A stretch of 32,104 nucleotides of DNA from an uncultured Bacilli bacterium. Its GTDB lineage: Bacteria; Bacillota_I; Bacilli_A; RFN20; CAG-826. Shown in pieces: positions 14,038 through 31,827 of the stretch. Each line of letters starts with the position of its first letter. Position 1 is the first letter of the stretch. The stretch is from contig CALVSI010000012.1 in NCBI GenBank assembly GCA_944358985.1, positions 1 to 32,104 of the forward strand. The letters are read 5' to 3'. Both the position numbers and the translations under genes were made by a program. The notes beneath the pieces are model-generated. The model did no database searches, was not told the DNA's origin, and worked only from the letters and a program-made list of their open reading frames with translations.

Positions 14038-15153
14038 ATGACTTACGAAAAGTACCAAGCCTATTACCAAGAAGCTTTAAAGATTAAGGAAAACCCTGAT
14101 GTTTTTGCTGCTATTAAGAAACAAACGGAATTATCTGAAGAAGCACAGAAAAAGGCAAAGATTAGATATGAGATAGAAGATAAGTTATATGAGCTTTATC
14201 ATTCAATTCCTGCCGATGGAATAGATGATGCTTTGTTTGGTGGACAAGATTTGCCTGAACACGAGCGAATGGTTCAAATAATGGAAATGTGGATGAAGAA
14301 CAACCCTAAGCTCAACATCATTAAAGAAACCATGGTGAAAAGCGGGAAAGACAAAGAAATCGGAGAACTTGAGAGAAAACTACAAGACGCTATTTTTGAA
14401 TATTTCTTGGCCCTCATTAAATTAGATACTGCTATTAATGAATCTAGGCAGAATCTTTTCTCTAAAGAATACAAAGAAAAAATGAAGGAATATGCGGATA
14501 ATGGTGTACTTCTTTACTTTTTGGAAACGCCAGATGCTCCTATCCTTTCGAAAGAATTTACAATTGATGACGTTCTAGAGTCGTTTACTTTTGGTGAATG
14601 TATATCGCTTAAAACGCTTTTCTATAGATTTGTAGCCGAAGACAATCCTTCGCCATCTATGAGAAGAAAAACTGAAGATATCGTTAGTGCAGTTAATTGC
14701 TTGGAAAACAGAGAATATCGCTCTGCAGCAAGAACGGTGTTTGCTCTACTAGAAAGCGAACATAAGAATTGCTCAACAGCAATGGATAATTACTTTACCT
14801 TAGATAAGCGAATGAGAAAAGGAGTGCAAAGAGCAGAGAAGATTCAACAGCTTCTTGATGGCCTCAAAGAACAAACTTATTTCTCAGAAGTATGGAATAT
14901 TGTTAATCCTCTATATAGAGATATATTGAATAGCAAGGCTGAGTCGTTTATTGACAGAAACTCCATCATTCATGGCGATTATTATTCGGATAAATTAGAT
15001 ATTAATGAAAAGGACGTTGTTAAGCTATTATTGCTCTTCATGAATATGAGAATGATTTCTGATCACGTTCAGTTATATTGCGAAATGTTGCGAGTGAGTA
15101 TTAATTACACCGAGATACACATCGCACAGCAATTGAAAAACAAGAAAGATTAG
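14038..15153 (+). CDS. Helical protein with a HEPN-like RxxxxH motif
   Basis: A 371-aa, mostly alpha-helical protein with no clear named match. Near the C-terminus residues 307-312 read RNSIIH followed by GDY, i.e. R-x4-H with Asn after the Arg, the RNase motif of HEPN domains. It is preceded by a helix with the pattern ARTVFALLESEHKN and followed by a long hydrophobic helix, an arrangement seen in HEPN domains that sense or cut RNA in defence and toxin systems. The first 150 residues are charged coiled-coil-like helices. No Shine-Dalgarno is visible; two palindromes lie just upstream. Its place at the island edge next to an Xre regulator suits an abortive-infection role, but this is inference. 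Confidence 0.7.
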   Translation: MTYEKYQAYYQEALKIKENPDVFAAIKKQTELSEEAQKKAKIRYEIEDKLYELYHSIPADGIDDALFGGQDLPEHERMVQIMEMWMKNNPKLNIIKETMVKSGKDKEIGELERKLQDAIFEYFLALIKLDTAINESRQNLFSKEYKEKMKEYADNGVLLYFLETPDAPILSKEFTIDDVLESFTFGECISLKTLFYRFVAEDNPSPSMRRKTEDIVSAVNCLENREYRSAARTVFALLESEHKNCSTAMDNYFTLDKRMRKGVQRAEKIQQLLDGLKEQTYFSEVWNIVNPLYRDILNSKAESFIDRNSIIHGDYYSDKLDINEKDVVKLLLLFMNMRMISDHVQLYCEMLRVSINYTEIHIAQQLKNKKD

Positions 15154-16860: not shown

Positions 16861-16940
16861 TTGATAAAAGAAGGTCTTATGCTAAAATCTAATTAACATC
16901 CGTTGGGTCGAAAAATTTAAAACAAAAATTCTACCCAACG
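16861..16940 (+). promoter_or_regulatory. Promoter and 5' hairpin of the Dnd-type operon
   Basis: TTGATA (16861-16866) and an extended -10, TGcTAAAAT (-10 at 16883-16888), with 16-nt spacing. The transcript would start near 16895. The leader then holds a perfect 8-bp stem, CGTTGGGT (16901-16908) with ACCCAACG (16933-16940), around a 24-nt AT loop, ending 7 nt before the ribosome site of the first gene. The repeat could be an operator dyad or an RNA hairpin limiting translation. No DndB repressor gene is present to bind it. Confidence 0.7.
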
Positions 16941-16960: not shown

Positions 16961-18706
16961 TTGTTAAAATACATTTGCAAAAAATGCGACAACTTAGAAT
17001 GTGAAACTAGTACGTGTCCTGTATGTAAAGGCAGAACTGATTTAGTTGAATCAACTATTTTTTATTGCAAAAAATGTAATGTTCCTGTTTTCGATAGTGA
17101 ATGTGAATGTTGTCATTCAAAATGCGAGAGAATAGGTAGTGATATTCGTCCTGTATTTGCTCAAGAAAGATTACTCTTAGAAGTTTTGTTAGGAAAGCCT
17201 TTTGAATACGCTGATCACTCTGTCTGGTGCGCTGGTGCCAACAATTATATTGTTGATGGAAAAAGAATTAGAGTTTCTTTTAGCGAATTATCTAAGCAAC
17301 CTTCAGATGTTGTTATCAAAACACTTAAAGAATATGAGCATCAGAACAAAAAATATGTTGATCATGATTTCGACAACACATTCATTAAGAAATTTTTAGA
17401 ATGTAACAAATATAGATTAAACCAAATCACAACTGAAGCCATTGATTATATCAAAAACGTTTCTGCTAAGTTTGATGACTCTTCAATGTTTGTTTCGTTC
17501 AGTGGTGGAAAAGATTCATCTTGCACAAGTCATTTGGTTATGCGAGCGTTGAATAATCAAAGAATTATTCATATGTATGGTGATACTACTCTTGAATATC
17601 CAACCTCTGCTGATCTTATTTCTGAATTCAGAAAAACATATCCGACCACGCCAGTTTTGGTTGCAAAGAATATTGACCAAGACTTTCAAAACTTATGCGA
17701 AGTTGTTGGCCCACCAAGTAGAGTAATGAGATGGTGCTGTACGGTTTTCAAAACTGGTGCCATTACAAAGAAAATTGAAGCAACATTTAGAAACAAAACC
17801 AGATTGTTGTCTTTCCAAGGGATTAGGAGAGCAGAATCGTTGGCGAGAAGTAAATACGATAGAGATACAGATAGTCCAAAAATATCTAAACAAGTGGTGT
17901 CCGCTCCGATTATTGACTGGCTGGATTTTGATGTCTGGTTATACCTTTTAGCTAATAAAGTGCCGTTCAATAACGCTTATAGGCAAGGCTTTAGTCGTGT
18001 TGGTTGTTGGTGCTGTCCAAACAATAGTGGATGGTCAGAGTTTTTATCGTCCGTTTATATGAATGAGCAATACAACAATTTTAGAGGAATGCTCTATCGT
18101 TTTGCTAAAAATGTTGGTAAAGAAGACTGGAAAGAATATATCGATTCTGGCAATTGGAAAGCAAGACAAGGTGGAAATGGCCTTGAGCACAGCAAAAACG
18201 CCATTGTCGAATTTAAACCATGTGCCCTCGATGAAAGTAGTCTTAACTTTGAACTTTCACGTCCAATCACTGAAGATTTATATACATTCTTTAGACCATT
18301 TGGGAAAATTGACTTTACTCTCGGAAACAAACGTTTAAACGAAGTTTATGTTCTGGATAGGCATACAAACATGCCAATAATGAAATTATCTGGAAAAATA
18401 GGTGCTACTACTTTAAAAGTAACAATGATTACCTTAACTAACACATTCAAAAACATGAAAGTGGTAGGAGAGTTAGTGAGAAATCAAGTAACTAAATATC
18501 AGACATGTATTGGGTGTTCTTATTGCTCGGCTGTATGCAAATTTAATGCACTAAAAGTATTTAATTTAGAAAAAGGTCATGTCGGTAGAGAAACAATCTC
18601 TTATTCAATTGACCTAAATAAATGTGTTGGCTGCTTAGAATGTGTAAAACACTTTGATGGCGGCTGCTACATGAAAAAAGTATTACGAACAAAGAAAGGA
18701 GAATAG
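16961..18706 (+). CDS. dndC: DndC-like PAPS-reductase-fold sulfur transferase with zinc ribbons and a ferredoxin domain
   Basis: A 581-aa PP-loop enzyme that probably activates or transfers sulfur onto the DNA backbone. The start is TTG with GAGGT at 8-nt spacing. Residues 6-55 hold two zinc ribbons (C6/C9 with C19/C22; C36/C39 with C48-C55). The PP-loop SGGKDSS is at 181-187. Cys clusters WCCTVFKT and GCWCCPNN are the iron-sulfur ligands expected in this family. The C-terminus is a two-cluster ferredoxin: C516xxC519xxC522xxxC526 and C555xxC558xxC561x7C569. Classical DndC is near 500 aa without the zinc or ferredoxin parts. The fused ferredoxin suggests a built-in electron supply. One nucleotide separates it from the next gene. 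Confidence 0.85.
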   Translation: MLKYICKKCDNLECETSTCPVCKGRTDLVESTIFYCKKCNVPVFDSECECCHSKCERIGSDIRPVFAQERLLLEVLLGKPFEYADHSVWCAGANNYIVDGKRIRVSFSELSKQPSDVVIKTLKEYEHQNKKYVDHDFDNTFIKKFLECNKYRLNQITTEAIDYIKNVSAKFDDSSMFVSFSGGKDSSCTSHLVMRALNNQRIIHMYGDTTLEYPTSADLISEFRKTYPTTPVLVAKNIDQDFQNLCEVVGPPSRVMRWCCTVFKTGAITKKIEATFRNKTRLLSFQGIRRAESLARSKYDRDTDSPKISKQVVSAPIIDWLDFDVWLYLLANKVPFNNAYRQGFSRVGCWCCPNNSGWSEFLSSVYMNEQYNNFRGMLYRFAKNVGKEDWKEYIDSGNWKARQGGNGLEHSKNAIVEFKPCALDESSLNFELSRPITEDLYTFFRPFGKIDFTLGNKRLNEVYVLDRHTNMPIMKLSGKIGATTLKVTMITLTNTFKNMKVVGELVRNQVTKYQTCIGCSYCSAVCKFNALKVFNLEKGHVGRETISYSIDLNKCVGCLECVKHFDGGCYMKKVLRTKKGE

Positions 18707-18707
18707 A

Positions 18708-19547
18708 ATGTCAGACTTAAAGTTTAAAAGAAATGAAAGTTTCTACATAAGAGACGGATGGTTTCAAAAAGCCATTCATGGTATCCATAATTCTCAAGAA
18801 AACATATTCTCTGGCACTAGAGGTGTAGATGAATTAGGCATTGGTTCTAATATGGTAAAAGGCCTCAAATATTGGCTTACTGCTTCTGGTGTTCTGCAAA
18901 GAAGTTCAACCAAATCCGAACTAACAGAACTCGGTGAATTGTTACTAAAGTATGATCCATATCTAGAATCAAGTTTTTCATGGTTCTTGATTCACTATAA
19001 TCTTGTGACCAATTATAATGAAGCTCCAATCTTTAATATGTTTTTTAATTTAAAAATTAAAACAAGATTTGAAAAAGATGATATTTATAACGCTTTAATA
19101 GAACAATTAAAAGAGAACGGCGAAGACATAAAAGATTCATATGTTTTTGATGATTTTAATGTCTTTTTAAAGTCATATACTGTTGAAAATAATGAAGGAG
19201 ACCCAGAAGACAACTATATTTGTCCTCTATCTTCACTTAACCTTTTAGAAAGAAAACAAAAAGATGTTTATTTAATGAAGCATCCTCATTATTCAGAACT
19301 TTCTTATTTGGTTGTTTATTATGCTTTATCTCAAAAATACAAAAAGCAATTTAATATTGAGGATGCTTTGATTGAAAACAATTCTCCAGTTTATTTATTT
19401 AATTTGGACAAAAACATGTTCCTTCAATACCTTGATGAAATGAGAAAGAACGGTTTAATCACTATTAATAAAACAGCTGGATTAAATACAGTTTACTTAA
19501 ATAAGAAGATGACTCTCCAAAATCTATTTGAAAGGAGGTTTAAATAA
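18708..19547 (+). CDS. DUF4007 protein
   Basis: A 279-aa DUF4007 protein. The family hallmarks are all there: ESFYIRDGWFQKAIHGI, IFSGTRGVDELGIGSNMVKGLKYWL, then TELGELLLKYDPYLESSFSWFLIHYNL and FNMFFN. DUF4007 genes travel with PAPS-reductase-type genes in phosphorothioation and BREX-like islands; no biochemical role is firmly known, and the helical winged-helix look suggests DNA binding. It overlaps nothing but is separated by 1-2 nt from both neighbours, so it is made in step with the sulfur transferase and the large ATPase. Confidence 0.88.
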   Translation: MSDLKFKRNESFYIRDGWFQKAIHGIHNSQENIFSGTRGVDELGIGSNMVKGLKYWLTASGVLQRSSTKSELTELGELLLKYDPYLESSFSWFLIHYNLVTNYNEAPIFNMFFNLKIKTRFEKDDIYNALIEQLKENGEDIKDSYVFDDFNVFLKSYTVENNEGDPEDNYICPLSSLNLLERKQKDVYLMKHPHYSELSYLVVYYALSQKYKKQFNIEDALIENNSPVYLFNLDKNMFLQYLDEMRKNGLITINKTAGLNTVYLNKKMTLQNLFERRFK

Positions 19548-19549
19548 TT

Positions 19550-22500
19550 ATGTATAGCAAGCTATATGAGATTAACAAGAACTTCCAATCATCTGTGAAT
19601 TTGGAATTAGATTTAGATAATGAATCTAAGATTTACGAATATGTTCCTACCAACGATATTTGCGATGTTCTCAAAAAATACATCAAATCCGTATTGGGAA
19701 AATCAAAAGACAGAGCAACAACTCTGGTTGGTCCATATGGAAAGGGCAAATCCTTCTTGCTCTTAGTATTGTCATACATCCTTTCAAAAAGCAAAGAAAC
19801 TAAATGCTGGAATGATTTAGCTGACAAAATCAAAAAGATTGATAACGAATTATATGACTTAATGATGGAATTAAAGAATAAGGACATTTCTTTATTAACT
19901 GTCATCATTAATTCTAACTATGAAAATTTAGATCAATCATTCATGCTTGCTTTAAGCGATTCGCTTAGGAAAGATGGAATGGAATCAATTGTTCCAAAGA
20001 ACGCTTTTAGTGTTGCGCTAGAAACAATATCAGATTGGAAAAAGGATTCTGAACTTTCAAAAGACTTGAAACAAACTTGTGAAAATAAGAGTGGCAGAAC
20101 TCTTGACGAAATTGAAAGAGGTCTCAAACAATATTCTAAAGAATATTATGATAAATTTTGCGAAGTTTATTATTGTATCCATAAGGGTGTAAAATTTAAT
20201 CCATTTATTAATGGGGATATCGTTAAAATTTATTCGGATGTCGCATATCAATCTCATTCGTTTGGATACTCAGGAGTATTTGTTATTTTCGATGAATTTT
20301 CAAAATTTATTGAGAGCTCAACTTCTGATGTTTATAGAGGGTTAAAGCTCATTCAAGACTTAGCGGAAAAGTGTACTAGAACAGGTAAAACTGACCAGTT
20401 ACATTTATGCTGTGTTACACACAAAAATCTTTCATTGTACAAAGGCAATAAGAAGGATTCCTTTAAAGCTGTTGAGGGAAGATTTGTTGAAGTAAGATTC
20501 AATCGTAGTCTAGAGGAAAATTATCAAATTATATCTGCTGCCATTAATAAGAAAAACGGTGCAGAAAAAGAAGCCAAAAAACAGATTTTAAACAATAGAG
20601 AATTTTATGAAAGAGTAAATGAGTTAGGGATTTTTGATAACGGCGATACTTTGTATCAAGAATTGTTTCCACTTAATCCGTTCACGTCTTATGCGTTAAT
20701 CCAACTTTCTGAGCTTGTAGCTCAAAATGAAAGAACCCTTTACACGTTCTTATCAGATACAGATGTTAACTCTTTTAATTTCTTTATACACAATAGCGAT
20801 AGTGGTCTATTTAATGTTGATAAAATCTACGACTATTTCTCTGAACTCATGCAAAAAGAAGAGGCTAACTTCATTAGAAATCTCTGGTATAGAGCAGAAT
20901 CAATTTCATCTAAGTTAGATGGTTCGCTAGAAAAAAGAGTGATTAAAGCTTTGGCAGTCATTCTCATGATCAATGATTATGACAAGTTACCTCCAAAAGA
21001 AGAGGTTGTTTCGCTTTGTCTAAATGAATCATTGGGAAAAGTGGTGGAAGTGATTAATAAGTTAATTGAAGCACACCATCTCAGAAAGAATATTTTGAAT
21101 AATTTGCTTTCGTTCGCTTTATCAAATACAAAACATATCGATGACAAAATTGCTGTTTTGTCTAAGACAAAATTCAAATCTTTTGATGAGGCTGATGTGT
21201 CAAACAAACTAAATGAAAAGCAATATCTTATTCCAAGAAAACACAACGAAGAAAGAAAGATAACTAGATTCTTTAAGGCAATCTACGTTACTGAAAAAGA
21301 ATTTACTAGTCTCACCAACTTTGACATCTTTTTTGAAAAGAATTATTGCGACGGCGTCGTTTTAAATCTCTTAAGACACAGTATGCCTGAAAATCAAATT
21401 CAGGAAAAGACGAACGCTGTTAAAAATGAAAGAGTAGTGGTCTGCTATCCCAAATCAAAAATAGACCCAGTTCTTAGAGAAGAATTGTTAAGATACGTTT
21501 GTTTGAGGGATATTAAATCTGAATCTGCTCTAGATGATATTTCTAGAGAAGAGATTAATCTCTTAATGGAGGAAACTTCAGAAGATATTAGAGTTTTGTT
21601 CAACAAATACTTTGAACAAGAAGTTGTGTTCTTTAATGCGTTATATACTGAAGGAACGCTATCAGCTCTTCTGTCCACAATTCTTGATAATTATTTCTCT
21701 AAAAAACTTATTTTCAATAATGAATTGGTTAACAAAAGAGTTCTATCGAAGCAATATCAAAAAGCTGTCAATAATGTCATTGATATCACGTTAAACGGAG
21801 GGGAAGATAGTTTTAATCCAACGAGTCCTGAAGCCTCGGTTAAAAGATCTATCCTAGAAAAAAACAAAGATAATCCAGAATATAGGGAAGTCATCGAAAG
21901 CATTAAAGGCAGAATTTTAGGCTTGGAAGGCGGAAGAGAAAACTTCTTAAAAATGTTCGGTTATTTGGAACAAGCGCCTTATGGTATAAGAGCGGGTGTT
22001 TTACCTATATTAATAGCTAAGTCTATTTCTGAATTAAGCAATGATAAAAACAACATTCTCATTTATTATGATAAAAAAGAAATATTGTTGGGTGCAGATA
22101 ATTTGGTAAAAGCTGTTGGGAAGGATACTTATTATCTGTCCTCTTCTAAGGGCTCAACAGAGCAAAAAAGTTATCTCGATGGAATGCTCAAATTATTTAA
22201 AGTTTCATCTACTAATTCAAGTAGAGTTGATACCGTTAATTTAGCAAATTCCATTAGGAAGTTCTTCATGGGACAACCGAGTGTAGTCAGAGCATGTAAA
22301 ACAATTGACTTCCTTATGCTTGGTAAACCAATTGTAGAAATTAAAAACTTATTTTTAGAGATAAGCATTAATCCACATGAGGCCATCTTCTCTAAACCAT
22401 TAAAAATATTAGAAACTAAAAGTTACAACAAAGTTATTGGTTTTTTCAAAGACATCCCAGAGACAATTGATAATGCAGTTAAACAGTACAAAGCTAATTT

Positions 22501-22972
22501 AATTAATGCTGTAAAAGAAACTTTTGGAATCGAAAAACAATCTAGCCTAAAAACTTGGTTAACTAGATTCATTGGTAGCTTTGCTCAGGAAAGCGAAAAA
22601 CTTATTTTGAGCGACGAGGACAAGGTGGTGGAAGATGCTATTAAAAACAGGGCTAATTATGATGATTGTCAAACAATCAATGAATTGGCTAAGGCTTGCA
22701 TCGGAAGTCAAATCGAAGACTGGGAAAAAGACAACAGTGAACAATTTATAAATAGACTCATTAAGTTTAGACAGAATGTTGCTGGAGCAGATAAGTTGGA
22801 TTTGAGCGCAAAAGGCATTAACAAGATGCTCAAGGAAGATGATTTGCAACTTGATGGTATTGCCGTTCTGTTAAGTAATAATGTTGAAAGTGCAATTGAA
22901 GAATTTTCTGATAGTGTTTCAAATGCAGATAAAGTTAAGATTCTTACAAAGATTCTTAAAAAGTATCTATAG
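19550..22972 (+). CDS. Large P-loop ATPase (1140 aa) of the Dnd-type operon
   Basis: An NTPase with one N-terminal P-loop domain: Walker A GPYGKGKS at residues 61-68 and Walker B VFVIFDEFSK with D248/E249. After the ATPase core comes about 800 residues of mainly helical sequence with no named domain that I can see. Size and layout recall the large ATPases of BREX (BrxC/PglY) and of Dnd-linked restriction modules, but the Walker A surroundings (TTLVGPYGKGKSFLLL) differ from BrxC. It probably couples recognition of unmodified DNA to the interference step with the neighbouring helicase. No nuclease motif is visible, so the effect may not be cleavage by this subunit. Confidence 0.82.
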   Translation: MYSKLYEINKNFQSSVNLELDLDNESKIYEYVPTNDICDVLKKYIKSVLGKSKDRATTLVGPYGKGKSFLLLVLSYILSKSKETKCWNDLADKIKKIDNELYDLMMELKNKDISLLTVIINSNYENLDQSFMLALSDSLRKDGMESIVPKNAFSVALETISDWKKDSELSKDLKQTCENKSGRTLDEIERGLKQYSKEYYDKFCEVYYCIHKGVKFNPFINGDIVKIYSDVAYQSHSFGYSGVFVIFDEFSKFIESSTSDVYRGLKLIQDLAEKCTRTGKTDQLHLCCVTHKNLSLYKGNKKDSFKAVEGRFVEVRFNRSLEENYQIISAAINKKNGAEKEAKKQILNNREFYERVNELGIFDNGDTLYQELFPLNPFTSYALIQLSELVAQNERTLYTFLSDTDVNSFNFFIHNSDSGLFNVDKIYDYFSELMQKEEANFIRNLWYRAESISSKLDGSLEKRVIKALAVILMINDYDKLPPKEEVVSLCLNESLGKVVEVINKLIEAHHLRKNILNNLLSFALSNTKHIDDKIAVLSKTKFKSFDEADVSNKLNEKQYLIPRKHNEERKITRFFKAIYVTEKEFTSLTNFDIFFEKNYCDGVVLNLLRHSMPENQIQEKTNAVKNERVVVCYPKSKIDPVLREELLRYVCLRDIKSESALDDISREEINLLMEETSEDIRVLFNKYFEQEVVFFNALYTEGTLSALLSTILDNYFSKKLIFNNELVNKRVLSKQYQKAVNNVIDITLNGGEDSFNPTSPEASVKRSILEKNKDNPEYREVIESIKGRILGLEGGRENFLKMFGYLEQAPYGIRAGVLPILIAKSISELSNDKNNILIYYDKKEILLGADNLVKAVGKDTYYLSSSKGSTEQKSYLDGMLKLFKVSSTNSSRVDTVNLANSIRKFFMGQPSVVRACKTIDFLMLGKPIVEIKNLFLEISINPHEAIFSKPLKILETKSYNKVIGFFKDIPETIDNAVKQYKANLINAVKETFGIEKQSSLKTWLTRFIGSFAQESEKLILSDEDKVVEDAIKNRANYDDCQTINELAKACIGSQIEDWEKDNSEQFINRLIKFRQNVAGADKLDLSAKGINKMLKEDDLQLDGIAVLLSNNVESAIEEFSDSVSNADKVKILTKILKKYL

Positions 22973-22983
22973 AGGTGGCTTTT

Positions 22984-24111
22984 ATGATTTATTTAGACAA
23001 TGCAGCCACAACATATCCAAAGCCAAAAGAAGTGTACGATGCACTAGATTTTGCTCAGCGAAATTTATCATTCAATGCAGGTAGAGGGACTTATAAAAAA
23101 TCTCAAGAGTGCCTGCAAGTTTTGGATGACTTAAGAAAAGAAATTGCATCTATTTGCAGAGCTGATTATAGAGATGTTGCACTTCTTTCTTCGGCCACAG
23201 AAGCACTCAATATAATTATCAACGGTATTGATTGGAAGGATGGGATGAATGTTTATGTCACCCCATTTGAACATAATGCAATTATTAGACCTCTCTACAA
23301 TATTAAAAAGACCGTGAATTTAAATATTCACATATTGCCATTTGATAAGGAAACATGGGAACCAGAATTATCTAAAATTGAGAACATGTTTGCCTTGGAC
23401 AATCCAGATGTTGTCTTTTCATCTCAAATAAGTAATGTGACTGGTCTACTTATTGATTATTCTGCTGTTTTTGAGTTAGCAAAGAAACACAACTCCGTTA
23501 CTGTGCTTGACGCCGCTCAAGGGTATGGAATAGTTGAATTAAGTACAAAAAACGTCGACTTCATAGTTTTTGCTGGTCACAAATCACTTTATGGTCCGTT
23601 TGGAGTCGGTGGCTTTATTAATTTAAACGATTCAAAACTTAAAATTGCTAAGAGTGGTGGAACTGGTTCAGATACATTAAATCATGACATGCCCGATTTT
23701 AAACATGAGAGATATGAATCTGGATCGCCTAATGTTCCCGCCGTTTATGGGACTCTAGAAGGAATAAAATGGCTTAAAAACAATAATGTTAAAGAACATG
23801 AAATTAAATTGACTAAATATTTGATTGATTCATTAGAATCATTAGAAAAAGTTGGCGTTTATGCACCGGTTGATAAGAGCAAAATGTTCGGCATCGTCTC
23901 TATATCTGTGGATGGATATTCTGCAGATGAAATTGGACACATTTTGGCTGACGAATTCGATATATGTATTAGAACAGGATATCATTGTGCCCCATTAATA
24001 CACGAATTTATCAATTCGACAATTAATGGAGGAACTGCTAGAATTAGTATTAGTGGTTTTAGCACAAAAGAGGACATAGACTCCTTAATTGATGCGCTAA
24101 GTACGTTTTAG
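22984..24111 (+). CDS. dndA: Cysteine desulfurase (DndA role), EF2568/SufS-like type
   Basis: PLP enzyme that takes sulfur from cysteine as a persulfide and would feed the DndC-like protein. The ATG at 22984 is used because AGAGGTGG (22971-22978) is its ribosome site; a GTG at 22975 lies inside that site. The N-terminus MIYLDNAATTYPKP is typical. The PLP lysine is K200 (FAGHKSLYGPFGVGG). The catalytic Cys is C335 in RTGYHCAPLIHE. That short Cys loop is the SufS-like (class II) form, whereas classical DndA is IscS-like, so this operon uses a different desulfurase lineage. Eleven nucleotides follow the ATPase stop and 32 precede the helicase. Confidence 0.92.
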   Translation: MIYLDNAATTYPKPKEVYDALDFAQRNLSFNAGRGTYKKSQECLQVLDDLRKEIASICRADYRDVALLSSATEALNIIINGIDWKDGMNVYVTPFEHNAIIRPLYNIKKTVNLNIHILPFDKETWEPELSKIENMFALDNPDVVFSSQISNVTGLLIDYSAVFELAKKHNSVTVLDAAQGYGIVELSTKNVDFIVFAGHKSLYGPFGVGGFINLNDSKLKIAKSGGTGSDTLNHDMPDFKHERYESGSPNVPAVYGTLEGIKWLKNNNVKEHEIKLTKYLIDSLESLEKVGVYAPVDKSKMFGIVSISVDGYSADEIGHILADEFDICIRTGYHCAPLIHEFINSTINGGTARISISGFSTKEDIDSLIDALSTF

Positions 24112-24143
24112 TAGATACGGTTTAAGGGAACGGAGAGCAATAA

Positions 24144-26312
24144 ATGGCACTTACTGATGTCAATATACTTCCTGAATATCATACAGTTGAGGACAATGTC
24201 ATTGAGGATTTTTATATTCCTTGTTTGGCTAACTCTGTTTCTTACAATCGTATTACAGGATTTTTTGCAGGAATTACGTTTCAAATGCTTGCAAAAGGAC
24301 TTTCAAAGTTGATTACCAATGGTGGCCAAATGAGGATGATTATTTCTACTCGCCTATCTCAACAAGATGAAGAAGCTATTAGACAAGGTTATACCGAACG
24401 AGAGGTTGTTGAGAAAAATTTTTTAGAAAGATTTAAAGATCCGACTGACGAGTTTGAAAAAGGATATTTATCCCTTTTAACATATTTGATTTCTCACTGC
24501 ATTCTCGATATTAGAGTCGTTTCAATTGGCAGTGCAATTACCACAGCTATGGAACATGAGAAACTAGGTATTTTCTTTGATGAAGTTGGTAACATGGTCG
24601 CTTTTTCTGGTTCAGGAAATGAAACCCCGTCTGGTTTGATTCATAACTCTGAAGATTTTGATGTCTATTGTTCTTGGAAGGGAATGGATCCTTATGGTAG
24701 GTGTTTCAATAAGGCTTCGTATTTCAATAAACTTTGGAATGGTAAATTTCCTAATGCGCATACAATGACATTCCCTGAAGCTGTAAAAGAAAAAATATTC
24801 CAATACCAGAATTATTTATCTAAAGAAGAGCTTGAACAACTTGATAACAAATATGTTGAAAATGTGAAATTAAAACGGGCCACCAGTAATGCGCAAAAAT
24901 TACCAAGCCTTGGAACAATAAAATTGCATAAATACCAATCTGATGCTATTTCAGAATTGCGAAATAATAATTATCGTGGATATTTTGACATGGCAACTGG
25001 AACAGGAAAAACTTTTACTGCTTTGGGTGGATTGACTGACCTAGTAAATAATCCAGACATTAAAACAAAGTCGTTTTTTGTTCTAATTGTTGTTCCGTAT
25101 ACGCATCTAGCAACTCAGTGGGCTGATGATTGTAAAAAGTTCGGAATAAGCCCTCTATTAGCATTTGGGCAATCTAGAAAATGGAGAAATTCATTTGAGG
25201 AAAAAGCTATTTCTGTCAAATTAGCACAATCAAAATTAGAGTGCGTTATTATAACAACGGCCAGTTTATTGCATCAGTTTGTTTTAGACACTCTAAGAGA
25301 TCCGAAAGTAGCAAGAAGAACAGTTTTTATCGCTGATGAAGCCCACAATCTGGGAGCAGGAAAAATTAAAACTGTTCTTAATATAGATTTCAAATACAGA
25401 TTGGGTTTATCAGCAACAATGGATAGACATCATGACGAATCCGGAACAGATAAGTTATATGAATTTTTTGATAAATGTTGTATTCACTATGATTTAGGAA
25501 GAGCTATTGCAGAAGGATATTTGTCACATTACAGATACTATCCTGTATTAGTGTATTTGGATGATGATGAATTAGACCAATACGTCAAACTTAGCAAAGA
25601 AATTGCGAAAAGAAGCGTTTATGAGGACCCAGATGAGTCTGAAGATTTAAAGAGATTGTTATTGAAAAGAGCGTTGCTTGTTGCAGGATGCAGAATGAAA
25701 CTAGACGTTCTCCGTGATGTGATAAAACCGTTTAAAAACACATACTATAATTTGATCTATTGCGGTGCTGTTTCATACGTAGATGCCACTGATCCAACTG
25801 AAGACTCTCAACTTAAAAGCGTTATGTCTATGTTGAGAAATGATTTAAAAATGAGAATTGAACGTTTTACTGCTCTAGAAGACATGACAACAAGAGATAC
25901 AATTAAGGACCATTTTCAAACAAAACTTATTAATGGGATCGCTGCTATAAAATGTCTTGATGAAGGAGTTAATATTCCTTGTATTCAAAGAGCCTTTATC
26001 TTAGCGAGCAGTACCAATCCTAAAGAGTATGTTCAAAGAAGAGGTAGAGTATTAAGACTGTTCAATCCAGTTGAAAAACCATATGCTGAGATTTTCGATT
26101 TTATTACATTGACAAGACCTTTAGATGAATTAGGAAAAATAGATCAGGACTATGCAAGGTTTGAATCTTCACTCGCCAAGCGCGAACTTGCGAGAGTAGA
26201 AGAATTTAGCAGATTATCAGACAATTCTGCGGAAAGTTATAAAATTATATCTGACATTAAGTCAGCTTATCACCTAGATGATTTTGATTTGGAGGACAAT
26301 GATAATGAATGA
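24144..26312 (+). CDS. PLD-like / DEAH superfamily 2 helicase
   Basis: A 722-aa fusion. The N-terminal part is a phospholipase-D-like domain: HEKLGIFFD from H138 (K140, D146), followed by VAFSGSGNETPSGL, the pattern of the HxK...GSxN nuclease fold in restriction helicases. The SF2 core has motif I ATGTGKT (G286-T290), motif II DEAH (398-401), motif III GLSATMDR, and motifs V-VI in CLDEGVNIPCIQ and EYVQRRGRVLR. Only one HxK is visible, so two copies must pair to form an active nuclease. It is the best candidate for the restriction arm of the system. Its last codons overlap the start of a 49-aa gene by 8 nt. Confidence 0.92.
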   Translation: MALTDVNILPEYHTVEDNVIEDFYIPCLANSVSYNRITGFFAGITFQMLAKGLSKLITNGGQMRMIISTRLSQQDEEAIRQGYTEREVVEKNFLERFKDPTDEFEKGYLSLLTYLISHCILDIRVVSIGSAITTAMEHEKLGIFFDEVGNMVAFSGSGNETPSGLIHNSEDFDVYCSWKGMDPYGRCFNKASYFNKLWNGKFPNAHTMTFPEAVKEKIFQYQNYLSKEELEQLDNKYVENVKLKRATSNAQKLPSLGTIKLHKYQSDAISELRNNNYRGYFDMATGTGKTFTALGGLTDLVNNPDIKTKSFFVLIVVPYTHLATQWADDCKKFGISPLLAFGQSRKWRNSFEEKAISVKLAQSKLECVIITTASLLHQFVLDTLRDPKVARRTVFIADEAHNLGAGKIKTVLNIDFKYRLGLSATMDRHHDESGTDKLYEFFDKCCIHYDLGRAIAEGYLSHYRYYPVLVYLDDDELDQYVKLSKEIAKRSVYEDPDESEDLKRLLLKRALLVAGCRMKLDVLRDVIKPFKNTYYNLIYCGAVSYVDATDPTEDSQLKSVMSMLRNDLKMRIERFTALEDMTTRDTIKDHFQTKLINGIAAIKCLDEGVNIPCIQRAFILASSTNPKEYVQRRGRVLRLFNPVEKPYAEIFDFITLTRPLDELGKIDQDYARFESSLAKRELARVEEFSRLSDNSAESYKIISDIKSAYHLDDFDLEDNDNE

Positions 26313-26454
26313 ATTGGATCAAGACAAAGTTCTAGCCATCTATGATGAATCTAGAAAAATTGTTAGCAAGGGTTTACGGTCAGGACAAACTAAAAGCGAA
26401 ATCGCTAACGAAATTTATAAGAAAATTAAGGAGATTGTAGATAATGAAGATTAA
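26305..26454 (+). CDS. 49-aa protein encoded between the helicase and dndD
   Basis: A gene too short for usual cut-offs, but with GGAGG at 26291-26295 (9-nt spacing) and start and stop overlapping both neighbours (8 nt and 11 nt), which strongly supports translation. The protein (MNELDQDKVLAIYDESRKIV, then SKGLRSGQTKSEIANEIYKK and a final IKEIVDNED) is one or two charged helices, with an SKSEIA-like segment that resembles a small helix-turn-helix. Very small proteins beside dnd-type modification genes have been noted in annotation, and this may belong to them. An upstream in-frame ATG at 26299 is too near the ribosome site. Confidence 0.78.
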   Translation: MNELDQDKVLAIYDESRKIVSKGLRSGQTKSEIANEIYKKIKEIVDNED

Positions 26455-28477
26455 TTCTATTGAGCTCCAAAATTTTAGACAGTTTGTTAATGAGCGTATT
26501 GAGTTTAATAGTGACTCAGATAAAAAAGTATCTGTTATATATGGCAGAAACTACATTGGTAAAACAACACTAATTAAAGCCCTTCTTTGGTGTTTGTATC
26601 GAGATGACGATTCTTTTAAAGCTGACCCAATCCACGTAAATAAAGAAATGCAGGATTCATGTTATACAGTTGGACAACAAGTAACATCAAGTGTAACCGT
26701 AGATTTGGAACATAATGGTTTTGGTTATACAATTCGCACATATCAAACATTCCAATCTACTCGTGTTGATGGTGTCATCAAATTTGTTCCTATTTTAAAA
26801 GAACCAACTCGTCAAATATACAAAATCGACAAAGTTGGAAACCCCATCCCAATTCCAAATAATCTTGTTGATAGAGAAATTGAATCAATTTTACCTTCAA
26901 ATTTAAGGAACTATTTCTTCTATGATGGTGAAAATAACAAGATTGACTCAGTTGCTAATAAATTGAGTTTGCGTGATGCTGTTCGTAACATCATGAATCT
27001 TAATGTGAGGGAAGAATTAATCAAACTTTTCTCTCCTACCTCTTCTAGCGGAGTAAAATCAAGATTTTCTAGCCAAATTCAAAGTGCTGACAGAGAAAGA
27101 AATGATGAACTCCAAGAAGAAATTGATAGATTGAGTAACGAAGTCGATAACGACGAAAAGAACAACGAACAAGCCAAAAAAGATATTGATGAATTAAGGC
27201 GTAAGGCTGAGGAATTGGAAGCTAGAATCGAAGCTAATTCCCAAGCTGAAGAGCTTCAAAGGAAACTTAAAACTGGAAGAAATACCTTAAGGGAGCTTAG
27301 AGAAACAAGGGACAACCTTTTCGCAAGATTATGTAAAAATCTTGATTCCAATGGCGGTGAGAATCCAGGTCTTGCTGGATTATACATTGCTATGACTCTC
27401 AAAGATAGTGATCTCGCAAATCAATTCAGCAATATTCAACTTACCAAACGATCATATAGCCATCAATCGGAGTCATCAATCGATGAAATTATCGAAAAAG
27501 GACTTTGTATCTGTGGACAGCCAATAAAAGAAGGCGATGAACATTATAAACATCTTATCGAGATGAAAGAGTTTGTCTGGCCAAGTGATTATAGTGCGTT
27601 GTTAAAAACATTCTTAAAAACCTATAACGTTAAATACGAATCTGCTGATGCAGCAGGAAAAGAAATTCATAAAATTGCTTCAGCTTTAAAAAAGACAATT
27701 CAAGATATAGAACAACAAATTGAAGAAAACGTATCGCTAGAAAAGAAATTAGGTGGCTTCACTGGAGATGTTGGAAGTTGGAGAAGAGAAGCATCAGATT
27801 TATTTAGACAGGCCGACGAAAAAGAAGTTGCTGTCAATTATAGTGAGCAGAATATTATCCCGAATAGAAAAGCGAGAATCCAAAAGCTTATTAACGAGCA
27901 AAACAAACTTGCTGATGCCAGTGACAAGAATAAAAAAATCCGCGAATACTGTGCTTATGTTGATGCTGTATTTGAATTGGCCTCAAAACGTCTGGAAGAT
28001 AAGAAAAACGGAATTGTTGATGCTTTAGAAAAACAGGCAAACGAAGTGTTCCACGGCATTTTAGATAAGAAGGAAAAAGACCTTTATCTCGATCCAACAA
28101 CATTCAATGTTGAAATCAGACACAACGGTCAAAAAATAACAAATTCTACCGCTGAGGGAATTGCTAAAAACTTAGGCTTCGTAGCAGGATTAATTTATCT
28201 GGCTAAGAATAAAAATTTAATCGGAAGTGGTGATGGTGATGATGATTTACCTGATAATTATCCACTATTTATTGATGCGCCATTCTCTGACTTAGATGAA
28301 CAAAACGTCAGAAACGCAGCTAAGATTTTGCCTGAATATTGTAGTCAACTAGTTATTACTTTACTCGATAAGGACTATAACATTGCAAAAGATCCTTTGA
28401 GCGTTTATTTAGATAAGACTTATCATTTATCAACAAATGAAAGTACGACAACTTCTAATTTTAAGGAGGAAAAATAA
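26444..28477 (+). CDS. dndD: DndD-like SMC/RecN-type ATPase
   Basis: A 677-aa ATPase that nicks or opens DNA for sulfur insertion in known Dnd systems. The N-terminus NSIELQNFRQFVNERIEF is the ABC/SMC signature of DndD. Walker A is GRNYIGKTT at residues 34-42. Coiled coils run at about 215-300 and 405-550, with a hinge between them carrying KGLCICGQPI (C355, C357), a reduced zinc-hook-like site. The ABC signature region is near TNSTAEGIAKNLGF, and Walker B is PLFIDAPFSDLD (D611). The gene overlaps the 49-aa gene by 11 nt and its stop shares a base with the next start (TAATG), so four genes are tightly coupled. Confidence 0.9.
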   Translation: MKINSIELQNFRQFVNERIEFNSDSDKKVSVIYGRNYIGKTTLIKALLWCLYRDDDSFKADPIHVNKEMQDSCYTVGQQVTSSVTVDLEHNGFGYTIRTYQTFQSTRVDGVIKFVPILKEPTRQIYKIDKVGNPIPIPNNLVDREIESILPSNLRNYFFYDGENNKIDSVANKLSLRDAVRNIMNLNVREELIKLFSPTSSSGVKSRFSSQIQSADRERNDELQEEIDRLSNEVDNDEKNNEQAKKDIDELRRKAEELEARIEANSQAEELQRKLKTGRNTLRELRETRDNLFARLCKNLDSNGGENPGLAGLYIAMTLKDSDLANQFSNIQLTKRSYSHQSESSIDEIIEKGLCICGQPIKEGDEHYKHLIEMKEFVWPSDYSALLKTFLKTYNVKYESADAAGKEIHKIASALKKTIQDIEQQIEENVSLEKKLGGFTGDVGSWRREASDLFRQADEKEVAVNYSEQNIIPNRKARIQKLINEQNKLADASDKNKKIREYCAYVDAVFELASKRLEDKKNGIVDALEKQANEVFHGILDKKEKDLYLDPTTFNVEIRHNGQKITNSTAEGIAKNLGFVAGLIYLAKNKNLIGSGDGDDDLPDNYPLFIDAPFSDLDEQNVRNAAKILPEYCSQLVITLLDKDYNIAKDPLSVYLDKTYHLSTNESTTTSNFKEEK

Positions 28478-29010
28478 TGAATATCTTTAGTGGCGATAAA
28501 AGCATTTATGGTAGATATGCTGCCATAATTAAAAAATACTCCAGAAGTAGTGATACTGATGCTGATGAATGGAAATTGTCCAATGGTGAGGATGCTGCTA
28601 AACCAGCTAAAATCTTTGCAACATATGTAGATTGCCTTTATGCTGGAGCAGCTATTGGTCTAGCAAAAGGCCTCAAGATAAAAGATGCATCTTCATCAAA
28701 CGATAAAAAAATGAGAGCAAACATCCTTGCAGCAGCATGGAAAAATAGACAAGTTGATTTCATGTATCTTTATAGATTGATGATATTAACTGACAAAGAA
28801 TTGAATCTTTCTAAAGATGAAAGAGTTAAAAAGGCGTGTACCGATATACCAGAAAGCCAAGAAGAATTTGAGTTTAATTATTTCTTACAATTTGCCTATG
28901 GTGGTTTGGTTGAGCTCGATAAAATGCTTGGCGATATTAGTGATTTTACCGGTTTATCTAATTACGCTTCGTCTGTTTTTTCTGATTTGCAGGATGACGA
29001 AGAAGAGTAA
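28477..29010 (+). CDS. Unassigned 177-aa helical protein in the DndE position
   Basis: The start overlaps the dndD stop by one base. The protein is helical with an acidic tail (DLQDDEEE). A segment, IFATYVDCLYAGAAIGLAKG, recalls the F-x-TY-x-D-x-x-x-AAA-x-G pattern of short dnd-associated proteins, which is the only similarity I can point to. Classical DndE is about 110 aa, basic and binds nicked DNA; this protein is longer and acidic at its end, so it is not a standard DndE. Its place directly after dndD implies a role as a DndD partner. Confidence is high that it is a gene and low as to function. Confidence 0.7.
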   Translation: MNIFSGDKSIYGRYAAIIKKYSRSSDTDADEWKLSNGEDAAKPAKIFATYVDCLYAGAAIGLAKGLKIKDASSSNDKKMRANILAAAWKNRQVDFMYLYRLMILTDKELNLSKDERVKKACTDIPESQEEFEFNYFLQFAYGGLVELDKMLGDISDFTGLSNYASSVFSDLQDDEEE

Positions 29011-29013
29011 AAA

Positions 29014-30153
29014 ATGCCAGAACTATCAAAATTTGAAAAAAGTGTTTATATAGCTATTGATGAACTGACCAGTATAAGTCCTGATGGTGAATTAACTTAT
29101 ACAAAGATTTTAACTTGCTATTTGAATGGTTCCGCAAATAAAGAGATACCTTGGGCAGCAATACAAAAATCAAAAGTTTACGGAAAGTTTCCAAAATCAA
29201 ATCTTTTAGGTGTCATGATGGCGTGCAACAAGTTGGTTGAAGCTGGACTGTTGAAAAAGATAAAAGTAGGAAGCAACTATAAGTATTTCAAGACATCAAA
29301 AAGATTAGAACAAGATTCTCAGCCAAAAGCATTTTCCGAAAGAATAAGTAAATATAAAAACTATTTATTGCAAAACTTTATTTCTTTTATTACTGAATAT
29401 TGCCCTTCGATAAAAGCGGTAGAGCATGAGAATTATTATGGCTTTATAAATAAGAACCCAATCCACTTTAATGAATATAATTGGTTTTGGCTTACAGACG
29501 AATCTAAAGAACCAAATTCTCTTAAATTGTTTATTAGATATCGACCAAACATGAAAAGCATCGCCTCAACTCTTAATCTATCACAATTATCTTTTGATGA
29601 AGTTGTTGATGAGCTGATAGATATCCTTGACAATGAAAAAGCAAAATACAAATTAAAGTTCAATAGAAGTATTTCTTATCCTCAATTGCAAGGACCTGTT
29701 TCTAAGCCAAAAGTTTCAACAAAAATTGAAGAGAGTGAATACATTGATATTTCATTTTTTACAAACGATGGCGAATATGATTTGTTTGTGAATGACGGTG
29801 GAGATGCTTCTGTGAATGCATCGCTATCTGTTAGTGAATCATCTCCTTATAAATATGGTGGGGACACAGTCTTTTCTCCTAAAGAACTCCAAAAAATTGC
29901 ACAAGGAAAACATAATTTTGATTTTTCATTTTTGAAATGGAAAGTTGTTGCATGGACCATTTCTAGAGATGATCCTTCTTTTATTCAAAATGTATTACTT
30001 GTCAATAAAAAAACCAAGGATTCATGTGTTTTTGTATCTATACCAAAAAGGAAAGTATTGTGCGTCACTACTAAGGAGTTTTATATAGACGTTAAAGAAA
30101 AAGAACGCAATTCTGCAGAGTTAATTAAAGAAATTTTCGAAAGATTAAAATAA
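29014..30153 (+). CDS. Unassigned 379-aa protein, last gene of the operon
   Basis: Begins 3 nt after the previous stop. The first 95 residues look like a winged-helix domain (helix SKFEKSVYIAIDEL, then MMACNKLVEAGLLKKIKVGSN as a wing). The middle is Lys/Tyr rich, and the C-terminal half is beta-rich (DISFFTNDGEYDLFVNDGGD, then KWKVVAWTISRDDPSFIQ). No nuclease or NTPase motif is seen. It may recognise DNA, modified or not, for the system. It is the last gene before the right att repeat, 124 nt downstream, with no strong terminator in between. Confidence 0.7.
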   Translation: MPELSKFEKSVYIAIDELTSISPDGELTYTKILTCYLNGSANKEIPWAAIQKSKVYGKFPKSNLLGVMMACNKLVEAGLLKKIKVGSNYKYFKTSKRLEQDSQPKAFSERISKYKNYLLQNFISFITEYCPSIKAVEHENYYGFINKNPIHFNEYNWFWLTDESKEPNSLKLFIRYRPNMKSIASTLNLSQLSFDEVVDELIDILDNEKAKYKLKFNRSISYPQLQGPVSKPKVSTKIEESEYIDISFFTNDGEYDLFVNDGGDASVNASLSVSESSPYKYGGDTVFSPKELQKIAQGKHNFDFSFLKWKVVAWTISRDDPSFIQNVLLVNKKTKDSCVFVSIPKRKVLCVTTKEFYIDVKEKERNSAELIKEIFERLK

Positions 30154-30387: not shown

Positions 30388-30420
30388 ATCGTTGTCTTAG
30401 ACGACAGCTTTTCTTTTTAT
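30388..30420 (+). terminator. Terminator behind the rlmD remnant
   Basis: GTTGTC (30391-30396) and GACGAC (30400-30405), a 6-bp stem with one G-T pair around TTA, are followed by a T-rich run. It is probably the original terminator of rlmD, left behind on the right of the island. Confidence 0.6.
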
Positions 30421-31031: not shown

Positions 31032-31116
31032 ATCACAAATTCATAAGTTCTCTGAAATTTTGGCAAAATCAGTCACAACCTAGACATTGGAAAAACAACC
31101 TAAAAGAGGGCAAATA

Positions 31117-31827
31117 ATGGAATGGATATGGATTGCAATACCTATCGCAGTAATTATCGTAATTATAACTATCACTATCGCATCATCTATTAATCATGAT
31201 AAAGGTGACTATAAAGATGGTGGCGGAACTCAAATAGGCGGTTCGGAAAGAATACCATTTTTTACTCCTGCCAACGATAGAGCGGGTATGTGGGGTGAAA
31301 AGGTCGTTAACTACCATCTAAGGCCTTTATTAAGAAAAGATGAATATTTATTAGCAAACCTCCTACTTCCTCTCAAGAATGGACATAAGACAGAAATCGA
31401 CTGTGTTTTAATTACAAGAAAAGGAATCTTCTGCATTGAAACCAAGAACTGGGTTGGTCATATAAGCGGAAGCGATGATGATGAATATTGGCTTCAGGAA
31501 TATGATGACCCATGTATGTCTGATAGAAGACATAAGAACCCTGTAAAGCAAAATGAAGGACATTGCGCTGTGTTAGAAAGATTGCTTAACAATAAGTTTG
31601 ATGTAGATGGTGCTGTAATATTTGCTGACCTAGAAGATGGTTGGGGAATTAGATCTGACTATGCATATACGGTTAACGAGTTTAAAAGATGGTATAGGTC
31701 TTTAGATGATTTCTACATCTCGGACGACGAGCTAAAACAGATATCTCAACTCTTAAACAAATATGTTGCGACCCCGGAACAGCTAAGGCAGCATCGCGAT
31801 GACGTCAAAAGAAGATTCAACAACTAG
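31117..31827 (+). CDS. Membrane-anchored NERD-domain protein
   Basis: A 236-aa protein from the ATG at 31117 (AGAGGG at 6-nt spacing); a TTG 30 nt upstream has no site. Residues 2-25 form a single transmembrane anchor (WIWIAIPIAVIIVIITITIA). The NERD (nuclease-related) domain follows: GMWGEKVVNYHLRPLL, then KTEIDCVLITRKGIFCIETKNWVG, with the Asp of EIDC and the Glu/Lys of IETKNW matching the D...ExK nuclease core. The family occurs with defence and DNA-processing genes, but its substrate is not known. It lies 0.8 kb beyond the island's right att repeat and is a single-gene unit. Confidence 0.87.
   Translation: MEWIWIAIPIAVIIVIITITIASSINHDKGDYKDGGGTQIGGSERIPFFTPANDRAGMWGEKVVNYHLRPLLRKDEYLLANLLLPLKNGHKTEIDCVLITRKGIFCIETKNWVGHISGSDDDEYWLQEYDDPCMSDRRHKNPVKQNEGHCAVLERLLNNKFDVDGAVIFADLEDGWGIRSDYAYTVNEFKRWYRSLDDFYISDDELKQISQLLNKYVATPEQLRQHRDDVKRRFNN

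What the first reader, a model, noticed from the sequence alone, without database searches (positions are those of the whole stretch)
16961..30153. Nine-gene variant phosphorothioation-type defence operon
Seen: a gapless operon encoding a DndC-like sulfur transferase, DUF4007, a 1140-aa ATPase, a cysteine desulfurase, a PLD-SF2 helicase, a 49-aa protein, DndD, and two unassigned proteins. Known: DndA/C/D install sulfur in the DNA backbone; DndFGH or Pbe proteins act on unmodified DNA. Inference: this is a modification and interference system in one transcript, lacking recognisable DndB, DndE and DndFGH. The gene content is closest to the Pbe-type alternative but with several unmatched parts, so it may be a distinct subtype.
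Basis: partly seen in the sequence, partly recalled or inferred. Interest (0 to 1): 0.85.

Follow-up and report, generated by a model that had tools for sequence, protein, structure and literature searches.

The report
Hybrid DNA-sulfur defence operon, Ssp plus Pbe
This is a bacterial anti-virus operon in which one known type of enzyme set that should tag the cell's own DNA with sulfur is joined to an attack module so far reported with a different tagging set, and the same join is conserved in dozens of gut bacteria, suggesting these defence parts are swapped like plug-in modules.

Summary
The operon is real: nine co-directional, nearly gapless genes at 16961-30153. Genes 1-4 are an Ssp-type phosphorothioate writer, not Dnd: SspD of the large BREX-4/BrxP kind, SspB (DUF4007), SspC and a cysteine desulfurase. 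Genes 5-8 are a complete PbeABCD module: PLD-SF2 helicase, small PbeB, CxC-hook ATPase (PbeC, not DndD), and PbeD. PbeD folds like DndE, so DndE's counterpart is present. Only gene 9 stays unassigned. The genome shows no PglZ or BrxL and no second PbeC/DndD-type ATPase, so this is not BREX-4 or Dnd. The join is not a one-off: 35 of 68 classifiable related loci, nearly all Bacillota, carry the writer plus PbeA. Their PbeA proteins form one clade apart from Dnd- or methylase-linked PbeA. The same writer order also precedes SspFGH, GmrSD-like nucleases, or a helicase-GHKL-PLD trio, with at least 22 effector changes on the writer tree. The window looks recombinant: its writer's nearest relative carries another effector, its Pbe's nearest relative a distant writer. 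Canonical Ssp-Pbe pairs occur on two alphaproteobacterial plasmids. No paper I could read reports Ssp with PbeABCD. Novelty: new variant of a known kind. Sulfur modification and defence activity are inferred, not measured.

The parts
16861..16888 (+). Promoter-like site TTGATA-16-TAAAAT with TG before the second hexamer
   Evidence: one of the best-scoring sites in the region, 10 of 12 with TG; overall such sites are not in excess over shuffles. By eye a similar TTGATA...TGCTAAAAT stretch precedes the operon in L018.
16901..16940 (.). Inverted repeat CGTTGGGTCGAA / TTCTACCCAACG between promoter-like site and first gene; possible operator or leader hairpin
   Evidence: By eye L018 keeps TTGGG...ACCCAACG; exact pattern not found in other loci; not seen in the two further loci examined.
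16961..18706 (+). sspD of the BrxP type: zinc-ribbon-like N-terminus, PP-loop sulfurtransferase (SGGKDS 181-186), C-terminal 4Fe-4S ferredoxin motifs
   Evidence: PADLOC BrxP 1.6e-79; Pfam PAPS_reduct 4.1e-30 and Fer4_7 2.3e-7; motifs; 55-68% identical to five homologues in same gene order.
18708..19547 (+). sspB, DUF4007 (triple winged-helix DNA-binding family)
   Evidence: Pfam PF13182 7.6e-68; PADLOC SspB 1.8e-50.
19550..22972 (+). sspC, ORC/Cdc6-type AAA+ ATPase, Walker A GPYGKGKS at 61
   Evidence: PADLOC SspC 7.5e-80, BrxC 9e-29; Walker A and D248/E249 over 93% conserved.
22975..24111 (+). sspA, cysteine desulfurase with HK203 (PLP lysine) and C338 in RxGxxCxP
   Evidence: Pfam Aminotran_5 8.6e-69; PADLOC SspA 1.1e-31, DndA 7.1e-31; conserved residues. 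Start may be ATG 22984.
24144..26312 (+). pbeA, PLD (HKD) nuclease domain fused to SF2 helicase (DEAH 398)
   Evidence: PADLOC PbeA 3e-209; NCBIfam TIGR04095 dnd_restrict_1 7.4e-137, below its curated cut-off; H138, K140, D146, S157, N159 invariant in 41 of 41.
26305..26454 (+). pbeB, 49-aa charged small protein (ORF open from 26278), overlaps pbeC by 11 nt
   Evidence: Same place and size class (about 47-92 aa) in 29 of 30 hybrid loci, commonly with the same 11-nt overlap. No family hit of its own.
26444..28477 (+). pbeC, CxC-clade ABC ATPase with Zn-hook motif CICG at 355-358, Walker A GRNYIGKT at 34
   Evidence: PADLOC PbeC 9.9e-76 against DndD 2.3e-18; CxCG invariant in 11 of 11.
28477..29010 (+). 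pbeD, DndE-fold protein
   Evidence: phmmer to relatives 8e-25 to 6e-5; 7 of 31 family members hit PADLOC PbeD, best 8e-8, the window protein itself does not; model pLDDT 86.8; VIA-align Z 7.5/7.4/7.4 to DndE 4lrv/5wtu/7x4e, next entry 2.0.
29014..30153 (+). Gene 9, 379-aa protein of unknown fold; accessory that accompanies one Pbe sublineage
   Evidence: No family hit; strong homologue only in G180/L015 (=L044 contig), the genome with the nearest PbeA; structure prediction failed (pLDDT 36.5).
30391..30408 (+). Terminator-like hairpin after the last gene

Best explanation
The operon is a self-contained phosphorothioate (PT) modification-plus-interference system of hybrid make-up: an Ssp-type writer of the BrxP subclass (SspD-B-C-A) joined to a complete PbeABCD effector. 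Inferred mechanism, from established work on the families: SspA takes sulfur from cysteine; SspD uses its PP-loop and Fe-S cluster to put it on the DNA backbone; SspB and the ring ATPase SspC choose the site. PbeC (ABC ATPase with Zn hook) and PbeD (DndE fold) scan DNA for that mark; on incoming DNA that lacks it, PbeA (helicase-PLD nuclease) is unleashed, nicking DNA or blocking its replication. PbeB probably tunes this. Shown here: the parts, their intact motifs, conserved order, one PbeA clade for this writer in Bacillota, and repeated exchange of effector behind the writer. Inferred: chemistry, reading of the mark, antiphage effect, and the role of gene 9.
For: Family assignments of genes 1-5 and 7. 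Intact catalytic motifs. PbeD by homology and fold. PbeB in 29 of 30 loci, PbeD-size ORF in 27 of 30, full PbeC in 30 of 30. 35 loci with writer plus PbeA among 68 classifiable. PbeA of the BrxP-type writers plus one canonical Ssp locus form one clade (SH-aLRT 99) apart from Dnd- and methylase-linked PbeA (partners). Effector exchange: at least 22 changes on the writer tree. No second PbeC/DndD-type ATPase in this genome; only one strong PAPS reductase. Literature: PbeABCD blocks virus SNJ1 replication in a PT-dependent way and PT-modified virus escapes (PMC6459918); domain reassignment of Pbe (PMC10853773); SspBCD can support different effectors (PMC8092258).
Against: No PT has been measured in this organism and no assay exists. 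Pbe's need for PT was shown with a Dnd mark, not an Ssp mark. Whether PbeA cuts DNA is disputed: Xiong et al. saw no cleavage (PMC6459918), Rakesh et al. argue for it (PMC10853773). Pbe also occurs with methylases, so its reading of PT here is not certain. The writer tree is a FastTree tree without bootstrap.
Confidence: 0.75

Rival explanations
1. It is a BREX type 4 system, or a remnant of one: BrxP, DUF4007, BrxC and cysteine desulfurase are the BREX-4 modification core, with Pbe genes merely inserted beside it.
For: Gene 1 matches BrxP best (266 bits); BREX-4 uses the same four components (PMC12839542).
Against: PglZ, kept in all 457 BREX-4 taxa surveyed in PMC12839542, and BrxL (96%) are not found in this 96%-complete genome; both searches rang in control genomes. 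Gene 3 scores SspC 267 bits over BrxC 98. The effector slot behind the writer in the classified loci holds Pbe, SspFGH, GmrSD or helicase-GHKL-PLD; PglZ/BrxL were not sought there by profile. The 2026 survey itself says a subset of SspD share the BrxP architecture.
Confidence: 0.1
2. Two independent defence systems share an operon: the writer serves some other reader or purpose, and PbeABCD recognises another mark, such as methylation.
For: Pbe is next to methylases in some genomes, and many Pbe loci lack PT genes (PMC6459918).
Against: No methylase lies in the operon; the writer and Pbe are adjacent and near-gapless in over 30 loci; the PbeA lineage tracks the Ssp partner; Pbe alternates in the same slot with SspFGH, whose dependence on Ssp PT was shown in Vibrio (PMC8092258).
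Confidence: 0.12
3. Abortive rather than restrictive: PbeA attacks the cell's own DNA when PbeB is displaced by phage, so PT is a safety mark and infected cells die.
For: Proposed for CxC systems in PMC10853773; small PbeB is present in 29 of 30 loci.
Against: No data here bear on it; in the archaeal system PT-modified virus was not restricted (PMC6459918), which favours direct discrimination of the invader.
Confidence: 0.2
4. The window's assembly joined unrelated pieces (a metagenome artefact).
For: The genome is in 47 contigs and is drawn from a small-genome lineage whose relatives here are mostly MAGs.
Against: The same join occurs on many independent contigs, including isolates such as Butyrivibrio hungatei XBD2006 (L084) and Clostridium sp. 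CS001 (L050).
Confidence: 0.01

Closest known systems
DndCDEA-PbeABCD (Xiong 2019, PMC6459918; CxC-DndE systems of PMC10853773)
   Same: All four Pbe components, same order A-B-C-D, intact PLD/helicase and CxC motifs, DndE-fold PbeD.
   Different: Writer is SspDBCA, not DndCDEA; no DndD-type ATPase besides PbeC in the genome; an extra gene 9 follows pbeD.
SspABCD-SspE and SspABCD-SspFGH (PMC8092258 and literature cited there)
   Same: SspB, SspC, SspA; writer followed by an effector in one operon.
   Different: SspD is the 581-aa BrxP-like form rather than the about 275-aa form; gene order D-B-C-A; effector is Pbe.
BREX type 4 (brxPCZL, with DUF4007 and cysteine desulfurase; PMC12839542)
   Same: Same modification core, including PP-loop plus ferredoxin architecture of BrxP.
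   Different: No PglZ or BrxL; SspD and SspB are separate genes; PbeABCD instead.
DndABCDE-DndFGH
   Same: Sulfurtransferase and cysteine desulfurase logic; PbeD shares the DndE fold and PbeC is a sister of DndD.
   Different: No DndC-type sulfurtransferase, DndB, DndF, DndG or DndH in the operon.

Membership tests
PbeABCD effector module | PbeA: PLD/HKD domain fused to SF2 helicase | tested here: met
   PADLOC 3e-209; HxKx5D and GSxN invariant in 41 of 41
PbeABCD effector module | PbeB: small protein between pbeA and pbeC | tested here: met
   Position and size conserved in 29 of 30 loci; no sequence model hit
PbeABCD effector module | PbeC: ABC ATPase with CxC hook | tested here: met
PbeABCD effector module | PbeD: DndE cognate | tested here: met
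   Fold Z 7.5 to DndE, next entry 2.0; family hits PADLOC PbeD in 7 of 31 members
DndCDEA-PbeABCD system | DndC/DndD/DndE as PT writer | tested here: not met
   Writer is SspDBCA; no second DndD/PbeC-type ATPase in the genome; only one strong PAPS reductase, in the window
DndCDEA-PbeABCD system | PT-dependent antiviral activity | not testable with these tools
   Needs LC-MS/PT-seq and plaque assays
SspABCD writer | SspB (DUF4007), SspC, cysteine desulfurase together | tested here: met
SspABCD writer | SspD sulfurtransferase | tested here: met
   PP-loop PAPS-reductase present, but of the BrxP-like subset; PMC12839542 states that such SspD exist
SspABCD-SspE / SspFGH systems | SspE or SspFGH effector | tested here: not met
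   No such gene in the operon; the rest of the genome was not searched for them
BREX type 4 | BrxP, DUF4007, BrxC-type ATPase, cysteine desulfurase | tested here: met
   (BrxC 9e-29)
BREX type 4 | PglZ | tested here: not met
   No hit in the genome; control rang in 2 of 14 genomes; genome 96% complete
BREX type 4 | BrxL | tested here: not met
   No hit; control rang in 2 of 14 genomes
DndFGH | DndF, DndG and DndH genes | tested here: inconclusive
   None in the operon; TIGR03237 search of the genome empty but its control rang nowhere

The most novel reading that the evidence does not exclude
An undescribed, stable subtype of PT defence: a BrxP-type Ssp writer with its own dedicated PbeABCD lineage, within a plug-and-play family in which the writer order D-B-C-A exchanges whole effector modules (PbeABCD, SspFGH, GmrSD, GmrSD replacing PbeA before PbeC, and a helicase-GHKL-PLD trio not reported with PT writers in the papers read). 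It would imply that mechanistically unrelated readers, one built on a DndE-fold protein, recognise the mark of one writer family.
Probability: 0.6. Interest if true: 0.68.

Novelty: new variant of a known kind. Interest (0 to 1): 0.58.

Why it matters
PT systems are usually taught as Dnd with DndFGH or Pbe, and Ssp with SspE or SspFGH. Here the boundary is crossed, repeatedly and in one operon. If the Ssp mark is single-stranded, as shown for canonical SspABCD, Pbe must read a mark different from the double-stranded Dnd one. That makes a long-standing question directly testable: what do PbeC and PbeD actually sense? Near-identical writer neighbourhoods with different effectors (window and L018, L061 and L063, L084 and L094) offer natural swap experiments.

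Tried and rejected
Scan of genome contigs with SspC alone found no relative; an SspD alignment worked. Viral contigs gave only one short partial match, so no sign of phage carriage in that scan. Rfam and tRNA scans of the window were empty. Sequence search of PbeD against the PDB gave nothing convincing; Foldseek alone put DndE first but with E 0.65, so the fold claim rests on the VIA-align gap (7.5 against 2.0) plus family evidence. Gene 9: no family, one relative of 26% identity, model too poor to interpret. An idea that the inverted repeat upstream is a conserved operator was weakened: beyond L018 the exact pattern was not found and the two further loci examined lacked it, the script having stopped there. 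DndFGH search in the genome was uninformative. The canonical HxKx4D search missed PbeA's motif; it is HxKx5D. Krishnan 2020 (NAR 48:10045) and Yuan et al. on BREX-4 (PMC12914056) are not held, so prior mention of Ssp-CxC neighbourhoods there cannot be excluded.
Full report
CHECK OF THE OBSERVATION. Nine ORFs run on the + strand from 16961 to 30153 with gaps of at most 32 nt or short overlaps. A promoter-like site with an extended -10 (16861-16888) lies just before and a terminator-like hairpin (30391-30408) just after (consensus matches only). The 49-aa protein is real: a 47-92 aa charged ORF sits between pbeA and pbeC in 29 of 30 related loci, commonly with the same 11-nt overlap into pbeC.

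WHAT THE GENES ARE. PADLOC, Pfam and NCBIfam give: gene 1 SspD/BrxP (BrxP 1.6e-79; PAPS_reduct plus 4Fe-4S); gene 2 SspB (DUF4007, 7.6e-68); gene 3 SspC (7.5e-80, over BrxC 9e-29); gene 4 cysteine desulfurase; gene 5 PbeA (3e-209); gene 7 PbeC (9.9e-76, over DndD 2.3e-18). Key motifs are intact: SGGKDS in SspD, Walker A in SspC, K203 and C338 in SspA, HxKx5D and GSxN plus DEAH in PbeA, the first two invariant in 41 of 41, and the CxCG Zn hook in PbeC, invariant in 11 of 11. The CxC hook is what separates the PbeC clade from DndD according to PMC10853773.

GENE 8 IS PbeD. It has no library hit itself, but is homologous to the ORF at the same place in other loci (phmmer 8e-25 to 6e-5). 27 of 30 further loci have a PbeD-sized ORF directly after pbeC, and 7 of 31 family members match PADLOC's PbeD model. 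Its model (pLDDT 86.8) aligns to all three DndE entries at Z 7.4-7.5, next entry 2.0. Foldseek also ranks DndE first, though weakly. Z near 7.5 alone would be modest; the gap and the family evidence together make the case.

GENE 9 is unexplained. Its only strong relative (26% identity) is in G180 (L015, the same contig as L044), again right after pbeD. That genome also carries the PbeA nearest to the window's, so gene 9 appears to travel with this Pbe sublineage.

THE SAME HYBRID ELSEWHERE. A scan of one genome per species with an SspD alignment found 359 relatives; the best 80 were kept. The order D-B-C-A is constant wherever contigs are long enough. Of 68 loci whose effector could be classified, 30 carry Pbe, 5 a GmrSD-family gene plus PbeA, 8 a GmrSD-family gene plus PbeC without PbeA, 11 SspFGH or relatives, 8 a helicase-GHKL-PLD trio and 6 GmrSD alone (representatives identified). 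In the 8 genomes with GmrSD plus PbeC, PbeA was not found anywhere, so the nuclease slot inside the Pbe module seems exchangeable too; that search had no positive control of its own, but the same query found PbeA at 31-49% identity in the phylum.

PARTNER LINEAGES. In the phylum and on plasmids, Pbe also sits beside Dnd genes (L158, L160, L162, L164, L168, L170) or methylase-like genes (L159, L163, L165, L169, L174). On a PbeA tree, 36 BrxP-Ssp-linked proteins and one canonical-Ssp-linked protein (L016) form one clade (SH-aLRT 99), apart from the others. Two alphaproteobacterial plasmids pair canonical Ssp with Pbe: CP099618.1 in one run cysteine desulfurase-DUF4007-SspC-SspD-PbeA-B-C-D, NZ_CP140639.1 on opposite strands. 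Their PbeA proteins fall outside the clade, but on long branches, so independence is likely, not proved.

MODULE EXCHANGE. On a tree of the concatenated writer, effector type changes at least 22 times among 69 loci (shuffled mean 35, so types are clustered but far from fixed). Close pairs differ: window (Pbe) and L018 (helicase-GHKL-PLD), L061 and L063, L084 and L094. For the window, the best match is L018 for all four writer genes (83, 63, 60, 61%) but switches to L044 for PbeA (49%), whose writer is only 55, 37, 28, 52% identical. For PbeC, L044 and L045 tie at 32%. This points to recombination at the sspA-pbeA junction.

MECHANISM. From known chemistry, the desulfurase and SspD deliver sulfur, while SspB and SspC choose the site. 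PbeC-PbeD scan DNA, and PbeA acts on DNA without the mark. Published tests say that archaeal Pbe needs host PT, spares PT-modified virus, and stops replication without visible cleavage (PMC6459918); a later analysis argues that the HKD nuclease implies cutting (PMC10853773). Nothing here measures either.

MEMBERSHIP AND NOVELTY. The effector meets every tested feature of PbeABCD. The system is not DndCDEA-Pbe (writer not met), not BREX-4 (PglZ and BrxL not found) and not Ssp-SspE or SspFGH. Searches of held papers for SspBCD with PbeABCD, pbeA with sspC, and BrxP with phosphorothioate returned no report of this pairing; two likely sources are not held. It is a new variant of a known kind.

Noticed in passing
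L018:17239-21597; also L027, L033, L034, L039, L040, L085, L096; Treponema saccharophilum plasmid NZ_AP025289.1 145939-150371: A helicase + GHKL (MutL/MzaB-like) ATPase + PLD nuclease trio directly follows the Ssp writer; no held paper links such a trio to PT modification. A possible new PT effector module, also on a spirochaete plasmid.
   Followed up: partly
L054, L062, L064, L066, L068, L070, L080, L087: A GmrSD/SspE-like nuclease stands where PbeA should be, directly before PbeC; no PbeA found in these genomes.
   Followed up: partly
CP099618.1 110432-122749 (L134) and NZ_CP140639.1 254334-274454 (L171): Canonical SspABCD paired with PbeABCD on alphaproteobacterial plasmids: in one run in the first, on opposite strands in the second.
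   Followed up: partly
L101:4034-4977: A DGQHR (DndB-like) protein follows pbeD in this Ssp-Pbe locus, although DndB belongs to Dnd systems.
   Followed up: no
L114:4001-4971: A sigma-70-like, MzaA-related protein follows pbeD.
   Followed up: no
window 14038-15153: 371-aa protein with no match in Pfam, PHROGs or NCBIfam, upstream of a small HTH and an HNH endonuclease gene.
   Followed up: partly
window 31087-31827: NERD-domain (nuclease-related) protein downstream, the last gene called before the contig ends; possibly part of a defence region.
   Followed up: no
L166 (G242:C1:97228-99093): Pbe genes next to a methylase-like fragment, broken by 6 in-frame TGA under table 11: decay or TGA read as a sense codon.
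   Followed up: no
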